Below are positions 163 to 42,102 of a stretch of DNA of 64,000 bases, piece by piece. Positions within the stretch are counted from its first letter, which is position 1; the number at the start of each line of letters is the position of its first letter. The DNA comes from Demequina iriomotensis (GTDB taxonomy: Bacteria > Actinomycetota > Actinomycetes > Actinomycetales > Demequinaceae), in contig NZ_BBME01000010.1 in assembly GCF_000971395.1 (NCBI RefSeq), positions 248,001 through 312,000 on the forward strand. The letters run 5' to 3'. Position numbers and translations under genes: made by a program. Below the pieces are notes generated by a model that did no database searches, was not told where the DNA came from, and saw nothing but the letters and a program-made list of their open reading frames with translations.

Positions 163-819
163 ATGCGGGGGGACGGCATGAGCGCGCAGCGGCGTGAGCG
201 GGGGCTTCGGGCGGTGCCCGGCGGCTCCGACGCCGTCGGCGCGCCCGCGAGCCGGCCGGGCCAGGACGCCGCGCGTCTCGCGGACCTCCTCGTGCGATCC
301 GGTCGCGGCGACGCGGCCGCGTTCGAGGAGCTCTACGACGCGCTCGCCGGAACGGTCCACGGGCTCGCCCACCGCATCGTCCGCGATCCCCACCTGGCGG
401 AGGACGTCGCTCAGGAGGCGCTGGTCGAGGTGTGGCGCGTCGCCGCGCGCTACCGCCCCGATCAGGGCTCGGCGCGCGCATGGGTGATGACCATCGCCCA
501 CCGCCGTGCCGTGGACCGGGTGCGCTCCGAGCAGTCCCACGCCGATCGCCTGCTCACGCACGGCGCGCGGCACTCCGGCGAGGTCGAGCACCCCGAGCAG
601 GTGGTGGACACGATGGACGCCCAGTGGCGGGCGGCGCGCGTGCGGCGCGGCCTCGCCGCCCTCACCCCGCTCCAGCGCGAGGCGCTCGAGCTCACCTACT
701 ACAAGGGCTACACGAACCGGCAGCTGGCCGAGTCTCTCGGCATCCCGCTCGGCACGGCGAAGGCGAGGATCCGGGATGCGATGATCCGTCTGCGGGACGG
801 CTGGGAGGTGGCGCGATGA
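163..819 (+). CDS. sigK: ECF RNA polymerase sigma factor, SigK-like
   Basis: Extracytoplasmic-function sigma-70 factor of 218 residues. Region 2 lies at about residues 43-125 (core recognition, -10 melting; ends IAHRRAVDRVRSE). Region 4 is at about 165-214, with the helix-turn-helix NRQLAESLGIPLGTAKARI contacting -35 elements. There is no long C-terminal domain, as expected for the SigK type. A second ATG at 178 has a G-rich stretch upstream and could be the true start; 163 has GAGG five bases upstream. The stop overlaps the next start (ATGA), so it is translationally coupled to its anti-sigma factor. SigK regulons in mycobacteria control exported proteins; the targets here are unknown. The gene start region contains one copy of the GGACGATGCGG repeat. 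Confidence 0.9.
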   Translation: MRGDGMSAQRRERGLRAVPGGSDAVGAPASRPGQDAARLADLLVRSGRGDAAAFEELYDALAGTVHGLAHRIVRDPHLAEDVAQEALVEVWRVAARYRPDQGSARAWVMTIAHRRAVDRVRSEQSHADRLLTHGARHSGEVEHPEQVVDTMDAQWRAARVRRGLAALTPLQREALELTYYKGYTNRQLAESLGIPLGTAKARIRDAMIRLRDGWEVAR

Positions 820-26569: not shown

Positions 26570-26775
26570 GGCGCGGTGCCGCTGTGACGTTCGCCACCTT
26601 CGCCCTTCGGACCCCATCGGGCCCTCACCATCATGGCAAAATGCCGGGACTCCACGCGGAACCATCGACTATGTCAGAGGGGTTCGCTACCGTCGTGGAC
26701 ACGCCGCGGGCGTCGAAACTGGAAGTACTACGGGGTACGAGCCACAGCTGCTCTGCCTTGCTGGGGGGGCAAGAC

Positions 26776-28491
26776 ATGTTCGAATGGCTCTGGCTGCTCA
26801 TTCCCGACTCGTCGTGGTTCTCTGAGGGCGGCACTCAGTCGCTGACCGCGACATTCATCACCCTCATGATCGCGATCAGCCTACTGACGGTCCTGTGGCT
26901 CTGGCGTCAACGACGCACGTTCGCGCGCCGCATCACGGGGCTCCGCGCAGTGGTCGCGAAGGCGGGCGCGAGCGATCCGATGGAGACGCGCCGAGGCCTG
27001 GTCGCCGAGGCGATCAAGCACGACAAGGTCGTAGCGAGCCTCTGGCGCGAGTTCGACGAGACGCTCGTCGCGTCCCCGGACGGCATCAAGCTATACAACA
27101 CGGTCGACGCCGACTACTTCTTCAACGAACGCACCATTGCCCCAGGCTTGGTGCACAACCGACTGCTCACCGCTGTTCCCGCGATCCTGACCGCCGTGGG
27201 CGTCCTCGGCACGTTCCTCGGACTCACAATGGGTCTGGGTGGCTTGAACGTCCACACCACCCTCGGCGAAGGAGCCGACACACAGGAGCTCCTCGAGGGA
27301 ATCCAGGCCATGATCGGCGCCGCAGGAGTCGCGTTCGTCACGTCAGTCTGGGGTGTCCTCCTCAGCATCGTGGTCAACCTCATCGAGAAGGCCGCTGAGC
27401 GACGCGTGCTTGATGAGATCTCGTCGCTGCAGCAGTCGATCGATCACGTCTACCCCCGTGTGACGCCAGAACAGCCGTTGCTCGCGATTCAGCACTCCTC
27501 TGACGAATCGCGCCAGTCTCTGCAGGAGCTCCACGAACGCATCGGCGACCGTCTTCAGCAGACGGTCGAACAGGTCTCGCACAACCTCGAGACCGCACTT
27601 TCGTCGGCGATCTCGACGGCTATGGGCCCAGCGATGGAGAAGCTGGTCTCCACTACAACCGAGCAGTCCACCGAGGTCTTCGGACAATTGGTGGACAAGT
27701 TCGCGGCCTCCTTCACCGACATCGGCCGCAAGCAGGCCGAGGCTCTCGACGACTCGTCGACACGACTCACAGCCTCGATCGACTCGATCGCGGAGACGTT
27801 CGCCGCCATCACCGAGGAGTCGCGTCGCCAATCGCTGGAAATGCGCAACCAGCAAGCAAGCGTGCTCATGGAGCTCACCAATCTCACCGAGGCGCTCAGG
27901 AGCTCGTCCCGCGATCTCGGCGATGCGGCGACCGAGTTCGGCGAGGCAAGCCCGAAGATCGTCGCGGCGGGCACGGCGATCGAGGGAAGCCTCACGCTGG
28001 CAGCAACGACGCTGAGCAAGATCCAGGAGAATTTCGACTTGCAGGCGAGGCTTGTAGGGAGGATGCAGGAGCAATCCGCGGCTCTGGGCGGCGAGCTCGC
28101 CGCAGCAGCGACTACCGTCACCTCGGGCACCGACGCAATGGCGCAGCGGCTCGCAGAGATTGGTGATGCGCAGCACGTATTCCAATCCGAGCTGCGGACC
28201 GATGCCGAAACGGTCGCCCAGGCACTTCGCGCACACGTGTCGGATCTCGAAGCACAGGTGTCGAAGTGGCTCTCGGATTACTCCGCGGACATCGAGTCGC
28301 AGATCGAGCGCCGGATGACCGTCTGGAACTCCCACAGCCAGGACTACGCCAACCAGATGCTCGAAGTCTCGAAGGTCCTCGCGACAGTCATCAGCGAAAT
28401 CGAGCTGAAGTCACAAACCGCACGCGTAGTCGGCGAGGCCGATGAGCTAGTCCGCGAAGCCGAGGCCTCCGCCGAGGACCGCCGAGCATGA
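26776..28491 (+). CDS. zorA: Zorya type I anti-phage system, ZorA motor protein
   Basis: MotA/TolQ/ExbB-type membrane protein of 571 residues. Membrane segments are at about 21-43, 130-157 (LLTAVPAILTAVGVLGTFLGL) and 179-203. A cytoplasmic tail of about 370 residues rich in Gln, Glu and Ala heptads follows, matching the long ZorA tail. With ZorB it forms a proton-driven motor that senses phage invasion at the envelope. The ATG at 26776 has GGGGGG six bases upstream. Base use is less GC-extreme than in neighbours, which fits acquisition by transfer. Stop overlaps zorB (ATGA). Confidence 0.92.
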   Translation: MFEWLWLLIPDSSWFSEGGTQSLTATFITLMIAISLLTVLWLWRQRRTFARRITGLRAVVAKAGASDPMETRRGLVAEAIKHDKVVASLWREFDETLVASPDGIKLYNTVDADYFFNERTIAPGLVHNRLLTAVPAILTAVGVLGTFLGLTMGLGGLNVHTTLGEGADTQELLEGIQAMIGAAGVAFVTSVWGVLLSIVVNLIEKAAERRVLDEISSLQQSIDHVYPRVTPEQPLLAIQHSSDESRQSLQELHERIGDRLQQTVEQVSHNLETALSSAISTAMGPAMEKLVSTTTEQSTEVFGQLVDKFAASFTDIGRKQAEALDDSSTRLTASIDSIAETFAAITEESRRQSLEMRNQQASVLMELTNLTEALRSSSRDLGDAATEFGEASPKIVAAGTAIEGSLTLAATTLSKIQENFDLQARLVGRMQEQSAALGGELAAAATTVTSGTDAMAQRLAEIGDAQHVFQSELRTDAETVAQALRAHVSDLEAQVSKWLSDYSADIESQIERRMTVWNSHSQDYANQMLEVSKVLATVISEIELKSQTARVVGEADELVREAEASAEDRRA

Positions 28492-29300
28492 AACTTGCCC
28501 GCAGGGCCCGACGGGGCGCTGTCGACGAGGAGAACTCCTACTGGGTGTCGTTCGCCGACATTATGTCGAGCCTCCTCATCCTGTTTATCCTTGCCGCAGT
28601 GGCACTCATGGTCCAACTGATGACCAAGCAGGATGAGCTCGGCACAGCGCTCGCAGAAGTCGATCGGCAGATGAACGAGCAAGAGCTTCAGCAGGCCGCG
28701 TTCGACGAGCAGATCAGCACGATCAGCGAGGCGGAGCGCGTGCGCGCCGAGATTCTCAGCGAGATGCGCGCGCGCCTCGAGGCAGCCGGCATCAAGGTGG
28801 TTCTGAACGACGACTCGTCAGTGCTGAGCATCCCGAGCTCCGCGCTCGGGTTCGGTGCCGGAAACTATGACATCGCCCCGGCCTACCAGGACCGCGCGAC
28901 CATCATCGGAACGATCCTCAGCGACGTACTTCGAGGCTCTGATCGGACGCGCTTCCTCGATACCGTGTTCGTCGAAGGACATACAGATTCCGTACCGTTC
29001 GAGGGACCCCTCGACATGGACAATTGGGGCCTGTCTACTTTCCGAGCGATCTCCCTCTGGCAGCTCTGGGACGAGACTCTGTCGAAGAAGCAGCAACTCG
29101 ACACGCTCCGAAACGCTGAAGGAGCGCCGCTCTTCTCCGTATCGGGGTATGCCGATACACGTCCCGTCGCGGGAACGCCTGACGGCGCGTCCGAGCATGC
29201 GCCGAACAGGCGAATCGACATCCGGATCACGATTGTCCGGCCCACCAGCGACGAGCTCCGAATCATCAGCGATGAGTTCGCTACCGGCACCGCGTCATGA
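28488..29300 (+). CDS. zorB: Zorya ZorB, MotB/OmpA-like anchor protein
   Basis: A 270-residue protein with one membrane helix at about 20-43, holding the conserved ion-channel Asp24 (SFADIMSSLLILFI). A short periplasmic coiled coil follows, then an OmpA-like peptidoglycan-binding domain from about residue 150 (FVEGHTDSVPF, NRRIDIRITI). This matches ZorB, the stator partner of ZorA. Overlaps both zorA and zorC by ATGA. Confidence 0.93.
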   Translation: MKLARRARRGAVDEENSYWVSFADIMSSLLILFILAAVALMVQLMTKQDELGTALAEVDRQMNEQELQQAAFDEQISTISEAERVRAEILSEMRARLEAAGIKVVLNDDSSVLSIPSSALGFGAGNYDIAPAYQDRATIIGTILSDVLRGSDRTRFLDTVFVEGHTDSVPFEGPLDMDNWGLSTFRAISLWQLWDETLSKKQQLDTLRNAEGAPLFSVSGYADTRPVAGTPDGASEHAPNRRIDIRITIVRPTSDELRIISDEFATGTAS

Positions 29301-30844
29301 CCCTGAGGCTGCCGCCGATCGGACTTCAGATCCCGCGCGCTTGGTCTGAGAGTTCAGAACGCAGGTGGGCCCAACTCGCCTCTTCGGCGCATGATCTCCA
29401 GGGATCGGCGTCGGCATCGGGAGTGGCCAACTACGCCGAGGTTCTCCGTCCCCCGCTCCGCCGAGGCGACACAGGCACAGTCTCTCAGCTCCTCACCTCT
29501 GCCGGTGCTGTCCGTGCCCTGGCCTGGCTTTGGACCGAGGTTGACGGCGACTGCGCCGACAGCATTTCGGTAGACCTCCTAGGAGAGTTTGAACGGGCTT
29601 CGGGTGCGATCTCGCGGCTTGCGATGCAGCACCTGTTCAGGGTCTACTTCATGCGATTCGACGAACTCGACGACCTACCTGCCGACCAAGGTGGCGCGGC
29701 GATCCTCGACACACTTGGCGCGCTATTGGCCAACCAAGCGGCGCTCCGTTCCCGGAGTCCGCTTGCAGGCACGCGCGCCCCGCGGACGGAACGCGACGGC
29801 CCGTTCGCTCTCGCGCAGGCAATCCGGCAGGGTGGCGCCGATCCCGCACGGGCAATTGCAGCCGCCGGTCTCGCCTCTTACGAGGGTGGACGCTATCTGG
29901 AGCTTGTGCGACAGCACCTCTTCCTAGAGGAGTTGCGCACGCTGCCACTCGGCGCCGAACAGCCCGTTCTCGGCGAGATCCGCAATCCGGCCACGCACCG
30001 CAAGCCGCACCTTCGTGGGCGCATGCTCGGCCACGCGGCACTCGAGATCCTCATCGATCGTGCGGACCACAGCTATCCGGGGGACGCCTGGCGAGATGCG
30101 GTACTCGACGTCGCCGGTGACCCGCGCCTCACGTACCACGAGTCATATGCGACATGGTGGCCGGTGCTGGGCTCCGAGCGCGAGGATCGCGTCGCGTCCT
30201 GGTTGGCCCGCGCCGACCTCCAGATCTTCCTCGACGTGCTGGCAAGGTACTCGGAGGAAGCCGGGATCCAGGGCATGTCCCGCATGCTCCCTCCGCGCAA
30301 GCGGATGCTCGAGGGTCTGATCGATCTGGGCATCGTCCGGCGCAGCCGCCTCTACGTGGGCGACGACGTCCGCCGCTTCGCACGGCAGGCGAGCCTAGCT
30401 GCCTCGGCAAACCTCACAGGAAGCCAGTACTCGCAGCGCGCGCTCCTGTACCTCGATTGCGGCGAGTTCCACATCATCGAGGGATCGCACAACACCCAGC
30501 TCTGGACATACCTCGACGTGCCTTCGAGCCGCATCATCGATCCCACCAGGCGCCGCTTCTACTACGAGGAGCTCACGAGTGAACTTGCATCAGGATTCGT
30601 ACGCCGCTGGCAGGCCACGATGGGGACGGCGCAGGGGACCGGGCATCTTGGAATCCGCCATGCAGGCCTCTGGCAAGCGAAGTTCCTCGAGTTCCTCGCC
30701 CATCATGGGATCGCAGTCAACCCCGAGGCGCTTCTGAGCCGAGCCGATTACCAGCAACTTCGCCAACGCCATGGGCTTCCGTGGGTCAACCCGGACGGCC
30801 GCCCCGTTGCGCTGGAGAGCGAGGACACACGTGGGACTGCGTGA
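29297..30844 (+). CDS. zorC: Zorya ZorC, EH-signature domain protein
   Basis: A soluble 515-residue protein. Its position between zorB and the helicase gene, its length, and its C-terminal stretch (FLEFLAHHGIAVNPEALLSRADY with preceding aromatic FYYEEL) fit ZorC of type I Zorya, which carries the EH_signature domain and binds DNA as an effector with ZorD. No catalytic motif is visible. Overlaps zorB by 4 bases and zorD by 14 bases. Codon use includes more A/T-ending codons than the genome norm. Confidence 0.88.
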   Translation: MTLRLPPIGLQIPRAWSESSERRWAQLASSAHDLQGSASASGVANYAEVLRPPLRRGDTGTVSQLLTSAGAVRALAWLWTEVDGDCADSISVDLLGEFERASGAISRLAMQHLFRVYFMRFDELDDLPADQGGAAILDTLGALLANQAALRSRSPLAGTRAPRTERDGPFALAQAIRQGGADPARAIAAAGLASYEGGRYLELVRQHLFLEELRTLPLGAEQPVLGEIRNPATHRKPHLRGRMLGHAALEILIDRADHSYPGDAWRDAVLDVAGDPRLTYHESYATWWPVLGSEREDRVASWLARADLQIFLDVLARYSEEAGIQGMSRMLPPRKRMLEGLIDLGIVRRSRLYVGDDVRRFARQASLAASANLTGSQYSQRALLYLDCGEFHIIEGSHNTQLWTYLDVPSSRIIDPTRRRFYYEELTSELASGFVRRWQATMGTAQGTGHLGIRHAGLWQAKFLEFLAHHGIAVNPEALLSRADYQQLRQRHGLPWVNPDGRPVALESEDTRGTA

Positions 30845-33800
30845 CATCATCCGGTCCGTCCTTCAGCAGGACGAGTCCGTCGAGCCCGGCATCGGCTTCC
30901 AGGTCTCCACGGACAGCGACGGCATCAACGTCGTCACTGGCCCAGACCAGTTCGAGCGGATCGATCGCGGCGAGGGTAGCCCCCTCGCGACGGCACAGCT
31001 GATCCTGATGCGCATGCTGGTCGAGCAGGGTCTGGCCGATGAGATCCCGCGCGGCTTCCAGATCGATGCGGTGCACGCGGCCGCGTTGGACGGCGAGGCC
31101 GCAGCTCTCCTGGACCTCCCGCCTCGCTATGCCGGGCGCGTCACCACCACCATCACGGGTCACACAGCCTCCACCAGGTTCGCCGTCGCCGCATCCGGCG
31201 AGGTCGACGGCGTGAGCGGCCGCATCCGCCTCAGCGGCCCCACGATGCGCATCGCGGGCGCTGACTTCCTCGCATCGCCCGTCGAGCTCGCCGCGCTGCG
31301 CGCCATCGACGCACACGCGGAGCTCGCGGAGGCCGACCGCACCGAGACCGCCAATGCGATGCTCGTCGCTTCGCTCCAGCGCGCCGCCGCCGAGGGCATG
31401 GACATCGACCTTGCGCACTTCACGCGGGGCGGCTGGACCACGTCCGTGCCCGGCGAGGTCGGCATCTCGGCTGCGCAGACCGCCGACGGCGGGCTGGTGC
31501 TCTCCCCCGCGCTTGCAGGCCTGCGCGTCGACGAGGCCGAGTCGCGATGGCACCAGGTGAGCGGTCGCTCGAGCGGCGTGCTGCGCGTGGGCAAGGGGCT
31601 CATCGTCCTCGAGGAGAGGTCGATGACAGCGGTGCACGAAGTCCTCCGCAATCGCACCATCGCGCCGGAGGAGGTCGAGGCGTTCCTCAGGACTCCGAGC
31701 GCGTTCCTCGACGCCGCGTTGGTGAACCTCGAGCTAGGCTTCTCCGTCCGCGTCGAGGGCATCGGTCGCATCGAGCACATGGACTTCGGCGACGGCACCG
31801 CGAGCAACCTCGACTGGTTCGCATCAGACTCATTGCCCAAGCTGCCCCAGGTCCTCGTCGACCTTCTCAAGACGCCGGACGATGTGGCGAGGTTCGAACG
31901 CCAGCTCGAGGCCGCCAAGGTTCAGGGTGCCGATGCAGTCCGCTTCGACGCCGAGCTCATCGATATCGGCGACCCTGCGGCCGTGACGGCCGCATTGGAG
32001 AAGGCGCGCGATCGCATCGTCAACGGCGCGCCGGACGATGCACCGGTCGCCAAACGCGCGCTCGCCCCCGAGCCGACCGAGAAGGTCGGCTTCCTGCTGC
32101 GTGAGGCCGACCGCGTCGAGACGGGTCTCCCGGACCGCGCGCGCGAGGCCTCTCTCCCCCACTCCCCCGACTACTCGGGCCTACTGCGCCAGCCGTTCCC
32201 GCACCAGCGTGAGGGCATCGAATGGATGCTCCGGCTGATGTCTGCGTCTCGCACCGAGGATCGCGATCAGCTCTACCGACTCCAGGGCGCGCTTCTCGCG
32301 GACGACATGGGCCTGGGCAAGACCTACATGACGCTCGTTGCGATCTCGGAGGTGGCACGTGCGGTCGAGAACGCCGGAACGGCGGCCAAGCCCGCGCTCG
32401 TGGTTGCGCCGCTCAGCCTGATCGAGAACTGGGAGGACGAGGTCTCCAAGACCTTCGCATCGTCGCCCTTCACCGAGATCGTGGCGCTGCAGTCAGGTCG
32501 AGACCTGCGCCGATTCCGCCGGTCGGGATCAGGCCGCGAGACTGCGCAGGCCGTCACGGCGATCGACGCGGGCGGCCGGGTCAAGGACGGCGAGCTGCGC
32601 ATCTCGCTCAAGGTGGGCGCCGATGCCCGGGCGGAGCGCCTCGACAAGCCTGGGCGTCTAGTGCTCGCCACCTACGAGACCCTGCGGGACTACCAGTTCT
32701 CCCTCAGCCAGATCGACTGGGGCGTGGTGGTCTTCGATGAGGCGCAGGCGCTGAAGAACCCCGATTCGATGCGGACTCGCGCCGCCAAGGCGATGAAGGC
32801 GGACTTCAAGCTGCTGGCGACCGGCACCCCGGTGGAGAACTCGCTCGGCGAGTTCTGGTGCCTCGTGGACACCGCCCAACCCGGGCTCCTGGGCGACTGG
32901 AGCGACTTCCGCGAGCGGTACATCGTCCCCGCGCAAGAAGCCGAGGGCGTCGAGGCGGACGCCGTCCGCGCGCGCCTGGGCCGCGAGCTTCGGGAAGCGG
33001 TCGGACCCTTCATGCTCCGCCGCGAGAAAGAGGACCACCTCGAGGGGTTGCCTCCCAAGTACCTCCACACCGCGCTGGCTGCGCCTGCGGGCGCTCGCGT
33101 CATCAACGACCCGACGCTCGCCCGCACGATGCCACCAGCGCAGCGCGACGCATACGAGGCCCACCTCCATCGCTTGCGCTCGGCTACCGGCGAGGGCGGC
33201 ACCGCCGCACTGGCTGTGCTCCTAGCGCTCCGGCTCGCCTCGCTCCACCCGGAGCTGGGCGCGCACGGTGCGCGGCCGTCCATCCCCACGGATGCACGCG
33301 ACGCCGAACGTCAGTGGAGAGCCTCGGCGAAGCTCGCGGTGACGATGGACGTGCTGCGCGACATCCAGGCGCGTGGCGAGAAGGTCATCGTCTTCGCGAT
33401 GTCGAAGGACCTCCAGCTGCTGCTCGCGCTGTGGCTCAAGTTCGAGCTGGGCGTGCGACCGCACGTCATCAACGGCGACACCGCAGCATCGTCGGGCGGG
33501 CGCTCACAGTCGCGCAAGGAGCTGATCGCGGACTTCGAAGCCCGGGAGGGCTTCAACGTCATCATCATGTCGCCCATCGCGGCCGGTGTGGGGCTCACGG
33601 TGGTGGGTGCGAACCACGTCATCCACCTGGAGCGCCACTGGAACCCCGCCAAGGAGGCGCAGGCCACGGATCGCGTCTACCGCATCGGCCAGACGCGGGA
33701 CGTGCACGTGCACCTGCCCGCCGCGACGCATCCGGACCTCGACTCCTTCGATGTGCTGCTCGACCGTCTGCTCGCTAGCAAGGTACTGGTGCGTGACGCG

Positions 33801-33860
33801 GTCATGGCACCTGGGGTGGTGTCGGAGGCGGAGATGTTCGCGGCGTTCGGCGGCCGCTAG
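30831..33860 (+). CDS. zorD: Zorya ZorD, SNF2-type helicase/nuclease effector
   Basis: A 1009-residue protein. The N-terminal half (1-430) is family-specific. The SNF2 ATPase core has Walker A DDMGLGKTYM near residue 490, Walker B VVFDEAQALKN near 635, TGTPVENS, and helicase motifs V and VI (MSPIAAGVGLTVVGANHVIHLE, ATDRVYRIGQTRDV). Type I Zorya is defined by ZorC plus this large helicase. The GTG at 30831 begins GLRDIIRSVL and lies within zorC. The operon ends in a strong hairpin. All four subunits look intact. Confidence 0.92.
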   Translation: MGLRDIIRSVLQQDESVEPGIGFQVSTDSDGINVVTGPDQFERIDRGEGSPLATAQLILMRMLVEQGLADEIPRGFQIDAVHAAALDGEAAALLDLPPRYAGRVTTTITGHTASTRFAVAASGEVDGVSGRIRLSGPTMRIAGADFLASPVELAALRAIDAHAELAEADRTETANAMLVASLQRAAAEGMDIDLAHFTRGGWTTSVPGEVGISAAQTADGGLVLSPALAGLRVDEAESRWHQVSGRSSGVLRVGKGLIVLEERSMTAVHEVLRNRTIAPEEVEAFLRTPSAFLDAALVNLELGFSVRVEGIGRIEHMDFGDGTASNLDWFASDSLPKLPQVLVDLLKTPDDVARFERQLEAAKVQGADAVRFDAELIDIGDPAAVTAALEKARDRIVNGAPDDAPVAKRALAPEPTEKVGFLLREADRVETGLPDRAREASLPHSPDYSGLLRQPFPHQREGIEWMLRLMSASRTEDRDQLYRLQGALLADDMGLGKTYMTLVAISEVARAVENAGTAAKPALVVAPLSLIENWEDEVSKTFASSPFTEIVALQSGRDLRRFRRSGSGRETAQAVTAIDAGGRVKDGELRISLKVGADARAERLDKPGRLVLATYETLRDYQFSLSQIDWGVVVFDEAQALKNPDSMRTRAAKAMKADFKLLATGTPVENSLGEFWCLVDTAQPGLLGDWSDFRERYIVPAQEAEGVEADAVRARLGRELREAVGPFMLRREKEDHLEGLPPKYLHTALAAPAGARVINDPTLARTMPPAQRDAYEAHLHRLRSATGEGGTAALAVLLALRLASLHPELGAHGARPSIPTDARDAERQWRASAKLAVTMDVLRDIQARGEKVIVFAMSKDLQLLLALWLKFELGVRPHVINGDTAASSGGRSQSRKELIADFEAREGFNVIIMSPIAAGVGLTVVGANHVIHLERHWNPAKEAQATDRVYRIGQTRDVHVHLPAATHPDLDSFDVLLDRLLASKVLVRDAVMAPGVVSEAEMFAAFGGR

Positions 33861-33874
33861 CTGCTCGCTCGACC

Positions 33875-33912
33875 GTGCAGGAGGACGGCGCTCTCGCGCC
33901 GTCCTCCTGCAC
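33875..33912. terminator. Strong bidirectional terminator hairpin after zorD
   Basis: A perfect inverted repeat with 17-base arms (GTGCAGGAGGACGGCGC, and its complement at 33896-33912) and a TCTC loop. It sits in the 55-base gap between zorD and the convergent sigma-like gene, so it probably ends both transcripts. The arms are all paired, with no mismatch. Confidence 0.8.
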
Positions 33913-33915
33913 CAG

Positions 33916-36354
33916 TCAGTCGACCTGGGGAGTCTCGGGCGCGTTCCCCGCAGTCTCGAGCAGTCCGAGCAACGTCCCGAGGTCCATTCCGCTAGTTCGC
34001 ATGAACGCACGAAGCTTGGGGCCGTAGGCCGACTGAATCTGCTCGGCGAGCGCGAACTGTCCCACCCGCTGCGCGGCACGGAAGTCTCGCTGGAGGGCAA
34101 ACAGCTCGCCGAGCGCGTCGTCACCGACCGGGGTCGGACCGTCCGCCGGCGATGCATCGTCGCTCGGTTCCTCGTCCACCCGGGCCGAGTCTGCGATCAA
34201 CAGCTCCAGCACCTCGGTGACATCGTGGTCGCCGCGCGTCGACGACCAGGTGAGAAGCTCCCGAATGCCCGCGCTCGCGGCGCAACCCACGGCCGCTGCG
34301 ACATCGCTGAGGTCGTTCCCCGCATGGGGTTCGAGGCCGACCAGACCCCGGAGGCGCGCGAGCGGCTCCGCATCGCGCCCCGCCACCGCGCGGAGCTCCA
34401 CCGTTCCTGAGTCGTGGAAGACGACGAAGAAGTCGTCTCCCAGTCGGAGGTCGGTCGTGGCGAGCTCCCGGCGTACGGTGCCAAGCGACGGCTGAAGGCC
34501 CGTCCACCGAACCGCGACTGAACCCGCGACGCCGTCGAAATCGCGCGACTCGCCGTAAGCGAGACCGAGCGCGGACGCGATGCCCGGGAGCAGTGCCGTA
34601 CCGCTGCCGCGCACATGGTCATCGTTCACCACGGACCGGAACAGCCAGGCTTCGCCCACGCGGTAGACGCGCTTGGTGCGTTCGGGCGACTTCAGGCTGT
34701 CGGGGCCCACCGCGCCCGCGCGACGGACCACGCCGCCCTCGTTGACGTACGGCGGCGCGCTCGCGTAAGCCACGACAGAGTTCGGAGCGACGGAGTACTT
34801 CGCGCAGATGGACGCCACGAGATCAGCGAGCTCGAGCTCGCCGTCATGCTCGTCGAGCACGCGCCCGATGAGTCCCCGAATGTTGTCGTAAGCCTCGAGG
34901 TCCCATTCGACCAGCGCCCACTCGTCGCGGTCGACGCGCATGAATCGTTGATCCGACCCCAGCCCGTTCTTCAGCGACCTCAGCGATCGATCCTGGCCCG
35001 TCTTCGCGAGGATCGCCTCCGATGTCAGCGGGGCACCCTCGATGGAGAGCACGGCCGCGGACCGGTCGACGATGCTGCGTGCACCGAACACCAGATGCCC
35101 GGCGATGACCTCGGCACCGCAGCGGACGAACCAGTCGAAGATCTCGTCCTCGGCACGATCTCCGCCGAACGACGCGGGCAGCGCGGGACGAAGGCCCGCG
35201 AGCCGCACCACGCCATGCGCGTCGGCGAGGTCCTTCGCCAGCGAACGCAGGCGGGCCTCGGCCTGGGCAAGGCTCGGCGCCGCGCACCACCCTTCCTCGA
35301 TCTCGTAGCGATCGTCGAGCCGGTCGAGCACACGCCACACCGGCATCCCGAGACCCGGGACCAGGTCGTCGAGCGCCGGATACTCCCGGAGAAGGTCCGC
35401 GAGCGGGAGCAGGTAGCCGATCGCCTTCGCGATGCCCTCATTCACCTCGCTCAGGAGCGCGTCCTCGCGGATCTCGCGCTCGAGGCGAGCTCGTGCCTTC
35501 GCCGAGACCTGACGAATGCGCTCACGCGTGACGCCGAAGTCCTCGCCCAGCGAGTCGAGGGTGCGCGGTGAGTCCGCGAAGAGTCGCTCGATCAGAGCGG
35601 CTCTCGCCATGTCCGACTCTGCTGCGACCAGTTCGCCCAGTCGCTCTGCGGGCGACGGCACCGCGTCGAGGAGAGACAGCAGGTCGATGGTACGCAGCGC
35701 ATGAAGGCGCCCGAATGCCGCCGCGACACCTTCCGGCAGGTCGAAGAAGGTGTCGCGCGCGAGAACCTTGCCGTCGTTGCGGCCCATCGCCGCCTGGAAC
35801 TCGACGAGGGTCCTGATGTCCGCGACCACATCGTCGATCGCTGCCGGCGTGGGATCCGGGACCGCGACATCGTCAGGCGCCGGGTTGGCCTCCACCTGCG
35901 CCTCCGCCTCGCGCCCGGCCGAGAGCGCCGACGAGACAGCCCTGTCGATCAGGAGCTCGAGCGCCCGGTCGACCGTCCGGACGGCACCACCGAGGAGGTT
36001 GGCCACCTCGGACGAGTCGACGTTCTCGAGCGCACCCGGGTCCTCATCGAACGGGTACGGGAGCGTGGCGATGCCTGCCGCTTCCCGGAGGGCGTCCGCG
36101 AAGTCCTCGCCCGTCAGCGACGGGAACAGCTCTTCGAGGGTCCAGAGCTGCAGGAAGTCGCCGATGACCGCGACGAGCTCGCGGTTTCGGGTGCTGCCCG
36201 CGGCTGCAGGCTCCTTGGTGATCCCGCTCCACGCCGCATCGTCCTCCGGGCCCCGCCAGACGCGGAGCGGGATCGCGTCCACCCACGGGAAGACGTCGAT
36301 CCACGTCGGACTGGAGTCGCCTTCCCTGGCGGTCGCCTGCGTCTCTGCCGTCAT
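33916..36354 (-). CDS. Large sigma-region-4-like DNA-binding protein
   Basis: An 812-residue soluble protein. At about 258-290 is a sigma-70 region-4-like helix-turn-helix (LDSLGEDFGVTRERIRQVSA), followed by ARARLEREI as in true sigma factors. There is no region 2. About residues 430-560 look like winged-helix DNA-binding modules (SEAILAKTGQDRSLRSLKN; ELADLVASICAKY). The N- and C-terminal thirds are not recognised. It follows the DGQHR gene by 9 bases, so they form an operon within the defence island. It could regulate the island or recognise DNA for a defence pair. Confidence 0.7.
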   Translation of the reverse strand: MTAETQATAREGDSSPTWIDVFPWVDAIPLRVWRGPEDDAAWSGITKEPAAAGSTRNRELVAVIGDFLQLWTLEELFPSLTGEDFADALREAAGIATLPYPFDEDPGALENVDSSEVANLLGGAVRTVDRALELLIDRAVSSALSAGREAEAQVEANPAPDDVAVPDPTPAAIDDVVADIRTLVEFQAAMGRNDGKVLARDTFFDLPEGVAAAFGRLHALRTIDLLSLLDAVPSPAERLGELVAAESDMARAALIERLFADSPRTLDSLGEDFGVTRERIRQVSAKARARLEREIREDALLSEVNEGIAKAIGYLLPLADLLREYPALDDLVPGLGMPVWRVLDRLDDRYEIEEGWCAAPSLAQAEARLRSLAKDLADAHGVVRLAGLRPALPASFGGDRAEDEIFDWFVRCGAEVIAGHLVFGARSIVDRSAAVLSIEGAPLTSEAILAKTGQDRSLRSLKNGLGSDQRFMRVDRDEWALVEWDLEAYDNIRGLIGRVLDEHDGELELADLVASICAKYSVAPNSVVAYASAPPYVNEGGVVRRAGAVGPDSLKSPERTKRVYRVGEAWLFRSVVNDDHVRGSGTALLPGIASALGLAYGESRDFDGVAGSVAVRWTGLQPSLGTVRRELATTDLRLGDDFFVVFHDSGTVELRAVAGRDAEPLARLRGLVGLEPHAGNDLSDVAAAVGCAASAGIRELLTWSSTRGDHDVTEVLELLIADSARVDEEPSDDASPADGPTPVGDDALGELFALQRDFRAAQRVGQFALAEQIQSAYGPKLRAFMRTSGMDLGTLLGLLETAGNAPETPQVD

Positions 36355-36363
36355 GGCGGACGC

Positions 36364-37659
36364 CTAGCCGACGACGAGCGCCGGGTCCGCCACCGTCGCG
36401 CGGTACCAGACCGCGTCAGGACCCTTGACCGCCTGGCTCACGATGAACGCGGTCAGCGTCTTCATGTCCTGGACGCGCGACGTCGTGCTGGTCGAGCCCT
36501 CGCTTCGCGCGGGCACGACGCCGGTCTGGAACCAGGAGTCCCGCACGTCGGGGAACACCGGCACCGCGAAGTGCGGCGCCATCTCGGCGAATGCCTCCTG
36601 GATAGCCGCAGGCTTCCACCCGAGCTGCCGCAGCTCGAACCACGCACCCGCGATGGCGCGCAGCACGACGTTGGAGCCGATCAGCGAGCGAGACCGCACC
36701 TGCGCGGGAGTCAGCGATCCGGCCACCACGTCCCTGAGCTCGGGGAACGCCGCCGCGATCGCGTCGGTGAAGGCGGTGAACTCGATCGCGATGTTCTTGT
36801 GGTCGAGCTCGTCCTCGAGACGCGGCGTGATCTTGCGCTTGCCGTTGGTGAGCGCGTGCAGCATCTCCGACACGTGCTTGGCGCCGATCAGGTACTTCGA
36901 GGCACCGGACACGCGGTCCTGCTCGAGGTCCACGCGGCCCTCGAGGAGCTCGTTGGAGATGAGCACCGCGTTGAGCGCCCGCACCAGCACCTTGCGGTCG
37001 TCGAAGCGGCTCTTGACCGAACCGGTGATGCCCTTGGCGTTGTCATTGATGTCGAGGAAGATTCGTCGCGCGGTCTCGGGGTTCTCTACGAGCACGATCT
37101 GGATCGAGACGCGCTCGCCCGCAAGCGCGTCGCGTCGGTCGACCTTCTTCTGCAGCTCCTTCTCGGCGTTCGCGATCACGGGGCGCTCGCCGAGCTCCTT
37201 GGCTCGGCCGACGAGCGTGCGCGCCTCGGAGATGTCCGCGGTGAGCTGCTCCCACGCGAGGTGGAAGCCCAGAGTGCGGTGCTGGCCGTCGACGATCGCG
37301 ATCTCCGACTTGGCGTCCTTCGGCACCGCGAGGGTGCCGAACTGCGTGGTACCCGTGTCGAGGTCCTGGCGGGAGTCGAACTCGAAGATGTGGGGCGCGC
37401 GCAGCAGCAGCGGCGGGGACACCCAGTCGGCCTGCTCGACCACGTACGTGCCGAACTGCTTGGCGTGGGTGGGAACGATGCGACGCTGCGTCGCCGAGGC
37501 GTCCAGAGGCTTCTCCGGGTCGGGCTTCGGCAGGAAAGTGACCAGCTCGCGGACCGACAGGTCGAGCGAGAAGACGGTCCTGCCTCCCTGACGGTACTTG
37601 GCCGCGAAGAAGTACTCGTTCGGGTCGTAGCCCGTGGGAATGTGCGCATTGTTCAGCAT
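36364..37659 (-). CDS. DGQHR-domain (DndB-like) protein
   Basis: A 431-residue protein. The hallmark DGQHR is at residues 124-128 (IAIVDGQHRTLGF). A central conserved stretch (IFLDINDNAKGITGSVKSRFDD) matches DndB, the transcriptional regulator of DNA phosphorothioation genes, and related DGQHR proteins. No dndCDE or dptFGH genes are near, so it is not a canonical Dnd locus. GAGGGG is seven bases before the ATG. It is the first gene of a two-gene operon with the sigma-like protein. Confidence 0.82.
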   Translation of the reverse strand: MLNNAHIPTGYDPNEYFFAAKYRQGGRTVFSLDLSVRELVTFLPKPDPEKPLDASATQRRIVPTHAKQFGTYVVEQADWVSPPLLLRAPHIFEFDSRQDLDTGTTQFGTLAVPKDAKSEIAIVDGQHRTLGFHLAWEQLTADISEARTLVGRAKELGERPVIANAEKELQKKVDRRDALAGERVSIQIVLVENPETARRIFLDINDNAKGITGSVKSRFDDRKVLVRALNAVLISNELLEGRVDLEQDRVSGASKYLIGAKHVSEMLHALTNGKRKITPRLEDELDHKNIAIEFTAFTDAIAAAFPELRDVVAGSLTPAQVRSRSLIGSNVVLRAIAGAWFELRQLGWKPAAIQEAFAEMAPHFAVPVFPDVRDSWFQTGVVPARSEGSTSTTSRVQDMKTLTAFIVSQAVKGPDAVWYRATVADPALVVG

Positions 37660-37693
37660 CGTTCTGCCCCTCAGTGTCGTCCGATGTGGGGAG

Positions 37694-37722
37694 AGCTAAT
37701 CGGAAGGGTCTGACAATGTCAA
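37694..37722 (-). promoter_or_regulatory. Promoter with overlapping operator for the DGQHR operon
   Basis: On the minus strand TTGACA (37722-37717) and TTAGCT (37699-37694) are 17 bases apart, ideal for a housekeeping promoter. The palindrome TGACATTGTCA (37721-37711) covers the -35 element, so a bound protein would block transcription. The start codon is about 35 bases downstream of the -10. The operon's own DNA-binding products are obvious candidates for self-control; this is inference. Confidence 0.55.
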
Positions 37723-38638: not shown

Positions 38639-39151
38639 ATGCACATGACCCACAGCGACCCCCTGGTCACTCTCCGCGCCACAGCTGAGCGCGTTGCGAA
38701 CGGTGTTCTCAAGGACCGGTGACGCGCCGAGGATGCCGCCCAGGACGCGATCAATCGACTGCTCGAGGACTGCATCGCGGGCCTTGATCGTCTCGACCGC
38801 AACGTGGCGTGCATGGCGAAGAGCACCGCCATCGATGTATTGCGGGCACCCACGATGGAGTGGTTGGCGGTCGAAGGCGACGTCGAGTGGATCGGCGACC
38901 TCGTCGACTCCCATGTCGGGCCGTCAACCTTGATTGCGCGGCCGGAGTACGTCAGGGACGTCTGCGATCCCTTGACGTCTGACGAGCGCGACAAGTTTCT
39001 AGCGACGCTCGACGGCGTCTCGAACGCCGAGCCCACCGATGCGCCGCAGAGCGCGCTGGCGACGATGCCTTGTCGCAGCCGAAGCCCAGTCAGCAGCGCC
39101 GATGTGCGGCACCGCGCGCGTGGCGGCCCTCGCCACGCATCACTACGGTGA
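38639..39151 (+). pseudogene. Decayed gene with in-frame TGA stop
   Basis: From ATG 38639 a good-looking frame reads MHMTHSDPLVTLRATAERVA and on to a TGA at 38720-38722. It then continues in the same frame with sound coding (NRLLEDCIAGLDRLDRNVAC, EWLAVEGDVEWIGDLVD, DPLTSDERDKFLATLDG) until about 39045, where it becomes Arg-rich nonsense up to a stop at 39151. A point stop plus a lost 3' end explains this best. No family recognised. Confidence 0.5.
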
Positions 39152-39155
39152 AAGA

Positions 39156-40091
39156 GTGACCGCTACTCCTGACGATGACCGGGGCATCGAGGTTCCGCGC
39201 TTTGACCACTTCTTCCGCCCCGTCCTGCTCGAGCTCGAGCGCGAGAGTCCATTGCGTACGCGCGACGTCATTTCACGAGTCGCGGACGCCCTCCGCCTGA
39301 CCGAAGCACAGCGCACAGCAGCAATCCCAAGCGGTCAGAGCAGGCTCGACAACCGCACCACCTGGGCCTGCAGCTATCTGTACCAGGCAGGCGCCCTCAC
39401 GAAACCCCGGCGCGGAATCTATGAGATCACCGACCGCGGACGCGACCTGCTCCGGACAAGACCAGATGTCATCGACGTCGACGACCTCCTCCAATTCGAA
39501 GAATTCCGCGAGTTTCAGCAGCGCAAGCGCGACACGGCCGCACCAACCGAGACCGTCGAGCCCGCCGAGGGCGATTCACCGCCGCGCGAACGCATCGAGT
39601 CCGCGATCAAGGCGGTCGACACCGAGGTCGCGGCAGACCTCCTACGCCGCCTTCGCGAGCGCGAGCCGAGGCTATTCGAACAGGCCGTGGTCGACGTCCT
39701 GCTCGCGATGGGGTACGGCGGCACAGAGCAGCGCGGAAAGCGCATCGGCGGCACTGCGGACGGCGGGGTGGACGGTGTGATCGATCAGGACGCACTCGGT
39801 CTCGACCAGATCTATGTCCAGGCCAAGCGCTACGCGCAGGGCAACAACGTCGGACGTGAAGCGATCCAGGCATTTATTGGGGCCTTGCACGGATTCGGCG
39901 CCAGCCGAGGCGTCTTCATCACGTCGAGCGACTTCACCCAGCATGCACGCGACTACGCGCAACAGATCCCGACGCGCGTCATCCTCATCGACGGCACCCG
40001 ACTCGCGCAGCTGATGATCAAGTACCGGGTAGGAGTCCAGGTCACCACCACCTACGACCTCGTCGAAGTCGACGACGACTTCTTCGAGTAG
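39156..40091 (+). CDS. mrr: Mrr-type restriction endonuclease
   Basis: A 311-residue type IV restriction enzyme that cuts modified foreign DNA. An N-terminal winged helix (about 10-100, DNA recognition) precedes a PD-(D/E)xK-like catalytic domain (170-290). The domain includes GGVDGVID (D206) and YVQAKRY (Q222, K224), the Mrr_cat signature, and GVFITSSDF. The GTG at 39156 gives the usual short N-terminus. All key residues are present. It stands alone in the island, downstream of the pseudogene. Confidence 0.9.
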   Translation: MTATPDDDRGIEVPRFDHFFRPVLLELERESPLRTRDVISRVADALRLTEAQRTAAIPSGQSRLDNRTTWACSYLYQAGALTKPRRGIYEITDRGRDLLRTRPDVIDVDDLLQFEEFREFQQRKRDTAAPTETVEPAEGDSPPRERIESAIKAVDTEVAADLLRRLREREPRLFEQAVVDVLLAMGYGGTEQRGKRIGGTADGGVDGVIDQDALGLDQIYVQAKRYAQGNNVGREAIQAFIGALHGFGASRGVFITSSDFTQHARDYAQQIPTRVILIDGTRLAQLMIKYRVGVQVTTTYDLVEVDDDFFE

Positions 40092-40176
40092 GAACGCGTC
40101 CTGTGTTGGCGTCCAAGTCCTCGATGCGAACCCAGAGCCGCCCATACAAGTCACATTCACGAGGGAGCGTGCACGC

Positions 40177-42102
40177 ATGAGCGTCGAGATGCAACAGCCG
40201 ACCATCACGGATCTCCTCAAAGACGTGCGAACGGGGCGCATCCAGCTGCCGGACTTCCAGCGCGAGTACCGGTGGGACGTCGAACGCATCCGTGAACTCC
40301 TGGTGACCGTGCTCAAGGGCCACCCCATGGGTGTGGTGATGGTCCTCCAGACCGGAAGCGACCACGTGAGGTTCAAGCCAAAGCCACTCACCGGCGTGGT
40401 GCGCGGAGGCGACGACTGCCGCGAGTGCCAGGAACGTTTCAGTTCCAAGGCCCCCGCCACGGTCGCAGCGCCGGACTACCTTCTCCTGGACGGCCAGCAG
40501 CGCCTCACTTCGCTGTTCCAGGCGTTGTCGGGGGACGGTGTGGTGCATTCCGCGGACGACAAGGGCAAGCTGCGTCACGTCCGCTACTTCTTAGACGTCG
40601 AGCTGGCTCTAGGCGACGACGGCAGCCAGTCTGATGCGATCGTGGTGATGCCCGCGGACGCCGTCGAACGCACCAATTTCGGCAGGGACATCGTGCGCGA
40701 CTGCAGCACACTTGAGGGTCAGGTCGAGCACGGGCTGCTTCCCATCACCGCGATCTACGACGACACGGCCATCACCTGGATGCTCGAGTGGATCAAGCCC
40801 GACGCGACGCGCGCAGCGACATTCCAGCGGCTTCAGAGCGACGTGTTCCTGCGCATGAAGTCGTACCAGATCCCCGGGATCGAGCTCCTCAAGTCCACAT
40901 CGCGCGAGGCGGTAGCTACCGTGTTCGAGAAGGTCAACACCGGCGGCCTTGCGCTCGACACCTTTGAACTGCTCACTGCGACGTTCGCGGGTGATCCGTC
41001 GGGGACAGGCGAGGACGGTTCCGACTTCCGGCTCGTCGACGATTGGAAGCTCACCAAGGAGATCCTGGAGCGGCACCCCACGCTTGGCGGCTTCCAACGC
41101 GTGTTCTTCCTCCAGGCCGTCACGCTCCTGGCCACCCACGCAAAGCGTCAGGCAGAGATAGCGGCCGACAAGTCCAAGCCGAGACCGACAAGCGCGCGGC
41201 GGGAGGATATCCTCAGGCTGCAGCTCACGGACTACCGCCGGTGGGCGGATGAGGTGCGCGCCGCACTGCCGTGGGTAGCGCACTTCCTCACCGAGCAGCA
41301 CATCCACTCGGACCGGTTCGTGCCCTACGCGACGCAGTGCGTGCCGCTCACCGTCATCCGGGTGCTGCTGGGTCACGATGCTGACAAGTACGCGGTCAAG
41401 CAGCGACTTCAGCAGTGGTACTGGTGCGGCGTGCTCGGCGAGCAGTACGGATCGACCACCGAGACCAAGTTCGCACGCGACGTGGATCAGGTACCCGACT
41501 GGGCGCTCGCTGCGGTGGACGGGCGCCAGGCGCGCCAGCCCGAGACTGTGACCGTCGCATCGTTCGCCGAGACGCGTCTCCTGACACTTCGCACGCGGCT
41601 GTCCGCGGCGTACAAGGGCGTCTACGCGCTGCTCATGCACGGCGGCTGCAAGGACTGGCAGTTTGACCAGGACATCGACCACGCGCACTACAACGAGATG
41701 AACGTGGACATCCACCACATCTTCCCCAAGAAGTGGTGCGAGAAGAACGACATCGACGATGCACGTCGGGAGTCGATCGTGAACAAGACTCCGCTCGGCC
41801 GCAAGACGAACATCATGATCTCGGCGAACTCACCTGCGGACTACGTTCCGATGCTCGAGGCAAGATCCGGACTCGCCCCGGAATCGATGGACGGAATCCT
41901 TCGTTCCCACCTGATCGATCCGCAGCTCTTGCGCGCTGCAGACTTCGACCGCTTCTTTGAAGCCCGTCGCGAAGCCCTTGTGACGATGATCGAAGGCGCA
42001 ATGGGCAAGCCCGTTCTTCGGGACATGGAGATGACGGACCGATCTGACCTCGTCTTTGAGGAGGCGGACGCGGACGAGCCCGACTTGGATGACGAAGCAT
42101 GA
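40177..42102 (+). CDS. GmrSD-like DUF262/HNH restriction protein
   Basis: A 641-residue fusion of an N-terminal DUF262 domain and a C-terminal HNH nuclease of the DUF1524 type. QLPDFQREYRWDVERI and LLLDGQQRLTSL (DGQQR, 105-109) are the DUF262 signatures for NTP binding. DIHHIFPKKW (H513, H514) is the nuclease core. GmrSD enzymes restrict DNA with modified, often glucosylated, cytosines. Four Cys near residues 87-90 and a further HNH-associated region suggest metal binding. GGGAG lies before the start. The stop overlaps the DUF429 gene (ATGA). Confidence 0.88.
   Translation: MSVEMQQPTITDLLKDVRTGRIQLPDFQREYRWDVERIRELLVTVLKGHPMGVVMVLQTGSDHVRFKPKPLTGVVRGGDDCRECQERFSSKAPATVAAPDYLLLDGQQRLTSLFQALSGDGVVHSADDKGKLRHVRYFLDVELALGDDGSQSDAIVVMPADAVERTNFGRDIVRDCSTLEGQVEHGLLPITAIYDDTAITWMLEWIKPDATRAATFQRLQSDVFLRMKSYQIPGIELLKSTSREAVATVFEKVNTGGLALDTFELLTATFAGDPSGTGEDGSDFRLVDDWKLTKEILERHPTLGGFQRVFFLQAVTLLATHAKRQAEIAADKSKPRPTSARREDILRLQLTDYRRWADEVRAALPWVAHFLTEQHIHSDRFVPYATQCVPLTVIRVLLGHDADKYAVKQRLQQWYWCGVLGEQYGSTTETKFARDVDQVPDWALAAVDGRQARQPETVTVASFAETRLLTLRTRLSAAYKGVYALLMHGGCKDWQFDQDIDHAHYNEMNVDIHHIFPKKWCEKNDIDDARRESIVNKTPLGRKTNIMISANSPADYVPMLEARSGLAPESMDGILRSHLIDPQLLRAADFDRFFEARREALVTMIEGAMGKPVLRDMEMTDRSDLVFEEADADEPDLDDEA

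What the first reader, a model, noticed from the sequence alone, without database searches (positions are those of the whole stretch)
33916..37722. Candidate new defence or regulatory pair: DGQHR protein plus an 812-residue sigma-region-4-like protein
A DndB-like DGQHR protein and a large protein with a sigma region-4 helix-turn-helix plus winged-helix-like parts form a two-gene operon, back to back with Zorya and sharing its terminator. No Dnd modification genes are present. The promoter carries a palindrome (TGACATTGTCA) over the -35 box, hinting at self-control. DndB-type proteins bind DNA and repress or sense modification. A sigma-like partner without region 2 cannot act as a normal sigma factor, so a distinct function is likely, either controlling the island or acting as a defence unit.
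Basis: partly seen in the sequence, partly recalled or inferred. Interest (0 to 1): 0.66.

Follow-up and report, generated by a model that had tools for sequence, protein, structure and literature searches.

The report
Promoter-reader-like protein in defence islands
Next to a Zorya anti-phage system sit two linked genes, one of which belongs to a little-noticed bacterial family built from RNA-polymerase DNA-reading parts; relatives of that family turn up inside several other anti-phage operons, so it is probably a DNA-targeting part of bacterial immunity rather than a gene-switching sigma factor.

Summary
A DGQHR gene (36364-37659, -) and an 812-residue gene (33916-36354, -) lie 9 bp apart, convergent with a type I Zorya operon across a 17-bp perfect inverted repeat. 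DGQHR passes PF14072/TIGR03187 but fails TIGR03233, the DndB model. Its nearest kin are phage-borne, and no DndC was found in the genome. The 812-residue protein has sigma region 4 only. It belongs to an actinobacterial family (alphaCTD-like HhH, sigma-4 HTH, HARE-like winged helix, conserved C-terminus) with no full-length Pfam or PADLOC model.

Family members open Dnd-linked PbeA-PbeC operons in four loci, face one convergently in a fifth, fill the MzaA slot of an MZA operon, precede a GmrSD enzyme, and adjoin an exonuclease ORF beside an MmeI-type enzyme. Best reading: the 812-residue protein is a DNA-recognition subunit and DGQHR its ParB/Srx NTPase/nuclease or switch (inferred). A TGACA-N-TGTCA site over the -35 box, conserved in Demequina soli, fits self-control. 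Main rival: the pair only regulates the island.

The parts
36364..37659 (-). DGQHR protein (ParB/Srx-like, phage-type DGQHR subfamily), 431 aa; DGQHR at residues 124-128, FLDIN (FxxxN) at 201-205
   Evidence: PF14072 113 bits, TIGR03187 94 bits; AlphaFold model pLDDT 78, top PDB hit BrxU (GmrSD family) prob 0.84 but E 0.014 and TM 0.23; groups with viral DGQHRs
33916..36354 (-). 812-aa multi-HTH protein: degenerate alphaCTD-like N-part, sigma-70 region-4 HTH (about 258-300), HARE-like winged-helix part (about 440-545), conserved C-terminal part with an RGSG motif
   Evidence: Sigma70_r4; RNA_pol_A_CTD and HARE-HTH hits in relatives, not in this protein; only about 70-125 and 487-545 modelled with pLDDT above about 70
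37711..37721 (.). TGACA-T-TGTCA palindrome overlapping the TTGACA -35-like box of the pair's promoter: two inverted -35-like half-sites
   Evidence: same position (-62) in Demequina soli, only the central base differs
33875..33912 (.). 17-bp perfect inverted repeat with 4-nt loop between the convergent ZorD and 812-aa genes, likely a two-way terminator
   Evidence: no T-run found by the simple terminator scan
26584..28491 (+). ZorA (type I Zorya)
   Evidence: PADLOC ZorA1 495 bits
28488..29300 (+). ZorB (type I Zorya)
   Evidence: PADLOC ZorB1 293 bits
29297..30844 (+). ZorC (EH signature)
   Evidence: PADLOC ZorC1 329 bits; PF15611
30771..33860 (+). ZorD (SNF2 helicase)
   Evidence: PADLOC ZorD1 1222 bits

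Best explanation
The pair is an accessory two-gene defence module beside Zorya. The 812-aa protein is not a sigma factor but a DNA-recognition subunit: its sigma-4 helix keeps the residues that read TTGACA-like DNA, and its other HTH/winged-helix modules add contacts, perhaps to modified DNA. It would steer or license an enzyme partner. In Pbe-type operons the likely partner is the HKD nuclease-SF2 helicase (PbeA), in one locus GmrSD, and here the DGQHR protein, a ParB/Srx-fold putative NTPase/nuclease. On infection the complex would bind foreign DNA and trigger or control the enzyme; between infections it would sit on its own TGACA-N-TGTCA operator and keep the operon low. Shown: gene order, domain content, recurrence of the 812-aa family in defence operons, conserved operator sequence, purifying selection. 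Inferred: physical complex, nuclease/NTPase activity, DNA targeting, anti-phage effect, autorepression.
For: Family members are first gene of PbeA-PbeC operons next to dnd genes in four loci (Arthrobacter sp. StoSoilB13, G438, G263, G548) and convergent with a PbeA/PbeC-like set in G530; PbeA, PbeC, DndA, DndB, DndC and DndD checked against PADLOC in sampled loci. One fills the MzaA slot of an MzaC-MzaD-MzaE...MzaB operon. One lies directly upstream of a GmrSD enzyme. One continues, across one in-frame stop, from a DEDD exonuclease/BRCT ORF beside an MmeI-type enzyme. DGQHR and the GmrS domain are homologous ParB/Srx-type domains (PMC4619093), so the Demequina and G609 pairs are analogous. RERIRQ of sigma 4.2 is retained at 277-282, and the operator is an inverted repeat of TGACA. 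Intact under purifying selection. Present with Zorya in the same 2 of 44 Demequina genomes.
Against: The exact pair is seen only in one Demequina lineage, so co-occurrence with Zorya may be one event. Tandem family copies flanking a UvrD helicase are widespread in what looks like Streptosporangiaceae, and mycobacterial copies sit alone near nuo genes, so the family is not exclusively defensive. No catalytic domain is seen in the 812-aa protein. The 812-aa model is poor (pLDDT 46), and the DGQHR match to BrxU is weak. Defence association was judged locus by locus, without a formal random-locus control.
Confidence: 0.45

Rival explanations
1. The pair is purely regulatory: the 812-aa protein and DGQHR bind promoters (their own and perhaps others in the island) and set expression of Zorya and neighbours, DGQHR acting like DndB as a repressor.
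For: DndB of Salmonella represses its own operon by binding palindromes in the promoter (PMC4507180). The TGACA-N-TGTCA site over the -35 box is conserved. The 812-aa protein has several HTH modules and no enzyme domain. First position in an operon is usual for regulators.
Against: The palindrome occurs once in the window, not before Zorya. Family genes lie inside operons (MZA) and in one case continue from an exonuclease. No similar operator is found before other family genes. The Demequina DGQHR is not a DndB equivalog.
Confidence: 0.3
2. The two genes are neighbours by chance: DGQHR is a phage-derived passenger and the 812-aa protein works alone or with Zorya.
For: DGQHR's nearest relatives lie on viral contigs, three directly upstream of terminase genes. 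None of nine related DGQHR loci has the partner. The pair is known from one lineage only.
Against: 9-bp spacing and one shared promoter; both genes conserved between two Demequina species whose right flanks differ; DGQHR is the most constrained gene of the module (98% identity, dN/dS 0.028).
Confidence: 0.15
3. The pair is a selfish or counter-defence element (phage-type DGQHR protein protecting or marking DNA) parked in a defence island.
For: DGQHR proteins occur next to packaging genes in phage contigs and on mobilizable plasmids.
Against: The 812-aa family lies in bacterial defence operons, with no match in 50,697 phage records and none in the viral-contig scan.
Confidence: 0.1

Closest known systems
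PbeABCD / CxC-ABC-ATPase systems with DndABCDE (Xiong 2019, PMC6459918; PMC10853773)
   Same: Relatives of the 812-aa protein are the first gene of Pbe-type operons beside dnd genes in four actinobacterial loci.
   Different: No Dnd or Pbe operon accompanies the Demequina pair, and the passages searched in these papers do not describe this gene as a component.
MZA system, MzaA
   Same: A family member occupies the MzaA slot of an MZA operon; both carry sigma region 4.
   Different: MzaA of Thalassospira is a full sigma-70 (regions 1.2, 2, 3, 4, plus ankyrin repeats); the family here has region 4 only, and the similarity stops there.
DndB / DGQHR proteins (PF14072, TIGR03187, TIGR03233)
   Same: DGQHR and FxxxN motifs and ParB/Srx-type domain; DndB also acts at promoter palindromes.
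   Different: Fails the DndB equivalog cut-off, no dnd genes alongside, and groups with phage-type DGQHRs.
GmrSD / BrxU type IV restriction enzymes
   Same: The GmrS domain is homologous to DGQHR (PMC4619093), and G609 pairs a family member with GmrSD.
   Different: The DGQHR protein has no HNH (GmrD) domain match.
HARE-HTH restriction-associated proteins (Aravind and Iyer 2012; cited in PMC12839542, not read)
   Same: HARE-HTH hits in relatives (E 1.4e-4 best) and in defence settings.
   Different: The window protein itself gives no significant HARE-HTH hit, and no nuclease is fused to it.

Membership tests
Sigma-70 RNA polymerase sigma factor | Region 4 HTH | tested here: met
   Sigma70_r4 23.7 bits alone (cut-off 24.1); all 8 family members match; family profile to SigA 7.6e-13
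Sigma-70 RNA polymerase sigma factor | Region 2 (core binding, -10 melting) and region 3 | tested here: not met
   No Pfam match to regions 2 or 3
MzaA (NF041931) | Full-length model score of at least 800 bits | tested here: not met
   29.5 bits, residues 262-301 only; hhalign to an MzaA-type sigma factor aligns 57 columns
DGQHR domain (TIGR03187 / PF14072) | Curated cut-off and DGQHR motif | tested here: met
   94.2 against 58.85 bits; 113.3 against 29.1 bits; motif at 124-128
DndB (TIGR03233) | Equivalog cut-off of 328 bits | tested here: not met
   44.4 bits
DndB (TIGR03233) | Linked dnd modification genes | tested here: not met
   No DndC match in the host genome; only a weak hit in a 1296-aa ORF with PbeC; both single-query searches
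GmrSD (DUF262 + DUF1524) | Both GmrS and GmrD (HNH) domains | tested here: not met
   DGQHR protein matches only PF14072 in Pfam; structural likeness to BrxU is weak
Type I Zorya | ZorA, ZorB, ZorC and ZorD in one operon | tested here: met
   genes 26584-33860
Type I Zorya | The DGQHR pair as a required Zorya component | not testable with these tools
   Both genomes with this ZorD in the genus carry the pair, but from one lineage
Pbe / CxC system | PbeA and PbeC beside the gene | tested here: not met
   Met for relatives L015, L058, L060, L095, not for the window

The most novel reading that the evidence does not exclude
The 812-aa protein belongs to an undescribed class of promoter-reading immune subunits, assembled from RNA polymerase modules (alphaCTD-like HhH plus sigma region 4) without the polymerase-binding region 2, that target defence nucleases or NTPases to promoter-like (-35) sites on foreign DNA; the Demequina DGQHR pair is a minimal two-gene version.
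Probability: 0.18. Interest if true: 0.85.

Novelty: new variant of a known kind. Interest (0 to 1): 0.55.

Why it matters
If the family is a shared DNA-recognition part, it links systems studied separately (Dnd/Pbe, MZA, GmrSD-type restriction, possibly Zorya) and would suggest that bacteria reuse promoter-reading modules of RNA polymerase to aim immune enzymes. It also gives a candidate extra subunit for actinobacterial Pbe systems, and a small two-gene unit with a defined operator that can be tested directly.

Tried and rejected
DndB proper: rejected by model score and absence of dnd genes. MzaA: only region 4 shared. True sigma factor: no region 2 or 3. The pair as a widespread system: no second independent instance found in the genome, plasmid, phage or viral-contig searches, although DGQHR itself was searched by single sequence only, in 296 genomes. 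A family-wide operator: TGACA palindrome only in Demequina. Full-length A1 profile search at phylum level was swamped by ordinary sigma factors, so a C-terminal profile (A3) was used. Structure of the 812-aa protein: too poor for a fold search. Structure search with DGQHR: only a weak BrxU match. The E. coli-type promoter scan found nothing. The original HARE-HTH paper was not held; supplements of the Dnd papers were not available.
Full report
What is there. The window holds a DGQHR gene (36364-37659, minus strand, 431 aa) followed 9 bp later by an 812-aa gene (33916-36354). They face a type I Zorya operon, ZorA-B-C-D at 26584-33860, across 55 bp that hold a 17-bp perfect inverted repeat. The host belongs to the genus of Demequina soli; the window is G000:C18:248001-312000.

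DGQHR. It passes PF14072 and TIGR03187 but not the DndB equivalog TIGR03233 (44 against 328 bits). It keeps the DGQHR and FxxxN motifs. Closest relatives (32-39% identity) lie on viral contigs, and in three of them the gene lies just upstream of a small ORF and a terminase large subunit (with a portal gene checked in L051); two plasmid relatives stand without the partner. A tree places the Demequina protein with the viral group and apart from DndBs of real Dnd loci. The AlphaFold model (pLDDT 78) has as top PDB match the GmrSD-family enzyme BrxU, weakly (E 0.014, probability 0.84, TM 0.23). This agrees with published homology between the GmrS domain and DGQHR, both assigned to the ParB/Srx fold with NTPase/nuclease members (PMC4619093).

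The 812-aa protein. Pfam sees only sigma region 4; a profile of eight relatives hits SigA/RpoD region 4 at 7.6e-13. Relatives add an RNA polymerase alphaCTD-like domain at the N-terminus (L095 9.2e-7, L058 4.2e-6, L060 9.4e-10) and HARE-HTH (best 1.4e-4). In the window protein the alphaCTD part is degenerate. Five close members keep R-E-R-I/V-R-Q of the -35-reading helix (window 277-282; R277, E278, R279, R281 and Q282 invariant). From established knowledge of sigma-A/-35 complexes, the equivalents of R277, E278 and Q282 contact the TTGACA element; here this is inference.

Distribution. Full-length family members are uncommon: seven of 396 genomes across the phylum at E of about 1e-30 or better, 2 of 47 in the family of the host, 6 of 396 in the order, 1 of 60 in the genus of G609. 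In the class sample 52 of 395 genomes match, most of them in one taxonomic family (f95, apparently Streptosporangiaceae), where tandem copies flank a UvrD-like helicase.

Neighbourhoods. (a) Four loci have the gene as first gene of a PbeA-PbeC operon followed by a small DndE-like gene, beside dnd genes: Arthrobacter sp. StoSoilB13 plasmid (L015), G438 (L058), G263 (L060), G548 (L095); in G530 (L101) a PbeA/PbeC-like set converges on it. PADLOC confirms PbeA and PbeC in sampled loci, DndB and DndC in L058, DndD and DndA in L015. The PbeA and PbeC homologues in Arthrobacter are each split over two frames, so that copy may be damaged or misassembled. (b) G1104: MzaC-MzaD-MzaE, then the family gene, then a cytosine methylase and MzaB; the MzaA-position protein of Thalassospira is a full sigma-70 with ankyrin repeats. 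(c) G609: directly upstream of a GmrSD gene. (d) G781: continues, across one stop codon, from a DEDD exonuclease/BRCT ORF beside an MmeI-type enzyme. (e) Microbacterium plasmids: after UvrD-type genes and before a DUF4011 gene. (f) Without evident defence genes: mycobacterial copies beside nuo genes, plasmid copies, and others. Three of the Pbe-linked members (L015, L058, L095) form one supported clade (100/100), while L060 and L101 lie elsewhere in the tree, so more than one association is likely; L060 is a long branch and its place is unsure.

The pair. It was found only in the host and Demequina soli NBRC 109394, at the same chromosomal site with conserved left flank and different right flank. 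The same two genomes, of 44 in the genus, carry the ZorD gene. Protein identities: ZorA 59, ZorC 69, ZorB 79, ZorD 82, 812-aa 88, DGQHR 98%; dN/dS 0.163 for ZorD, 0.166 for the 812-aa gene, 0.028 for DGQHR. None of nine related DGQHR loci (seven viral, two plasmid) carries the partner.

The operator. TGACATTGTCA overlaps TTGACA, 62 bp before the DGQHR start. In D. soli it is TGACAATGTCA at the same position, and similarity falls off just upstream. It reads as two inverted -35-like half-sites. None of 16 other family loci checked has it, so it is a Demequina feature.

Interpretation. Recurrence of the 812-aa family inside defence operons of different chemistry is hard to explain for a housekeeping regulator and fits a DNA-recognition part working with an enzyme: PbeA, GmrSD, or here DGQHR. 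The step from neighbourhood to mechanism is inference. A pure regulator is the main rival, since DndB represses through promoter palindromes (PMC4507180). Chance adjacency of a phage-derived DGQHR cannot be excluded because only one lineage shows the pair.

Novelty. No full-length Pfam, NCBIfam or PADLOC model covers the 812-aa protein. The passages found in the 2024 Dnd survey (PMC10853773) and the Pbe paper (PMC6459918) do not name such a component; supplements could not be read. NCBI labels one relative 'sigma factor-like helix-turn-helix DNA-binding protein'. Hence a new variant of known kinds rather than a categorically new system.

Noticed in passing
L051 7944-13340, L053 7896-12202, L054 7968-11814 (IMG/VR contigs): Viral contigs encode a DGQHR protein just upstream of a small ORF and terminase large subunit (portal checked in L051); no match in the INPHARED phage collection. 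A possible packaging-linked role of DGQHR proteins.
   Followed up: partly
L058 7086-10979 (G438): The family protein of this Pbe operon carries a roughly 600-residue N-terminal extension of repeated zinc-binding-loop-like (zf-His_Me_endon) modules.
   Followed up: no
window 39039-42102 (+): Mrr-type and GmrSD-type restriction genes adjoin the pair; D. soli has a type IIG enzyme and a PDC-S48 candidate at the same edge, so the right side of the island is variable.
   Followed up: partly
L012 5503-11509, L110 4931-10828: Two diverged family copies flank a UvrD-like helicase, widespread in f95 (apparently Streptosporangiaceae): a possibly non-defensive branch.
   Followed up: partly
window 26584-30844: ZorA (59%) and ZorC (69%) are far more diverged between the two Demequina species than ZorD (82%) and the pair (88-98%), suggesting fast change of Zorya parts or recombination.
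   Followed up: no
L101 10688-19862 (G530): PbeC-like, PbeA-like and PP-loop genes plus a large P-loop protein form a Pbe-type cluster that looks different from the canonical one.
   Followed up: no
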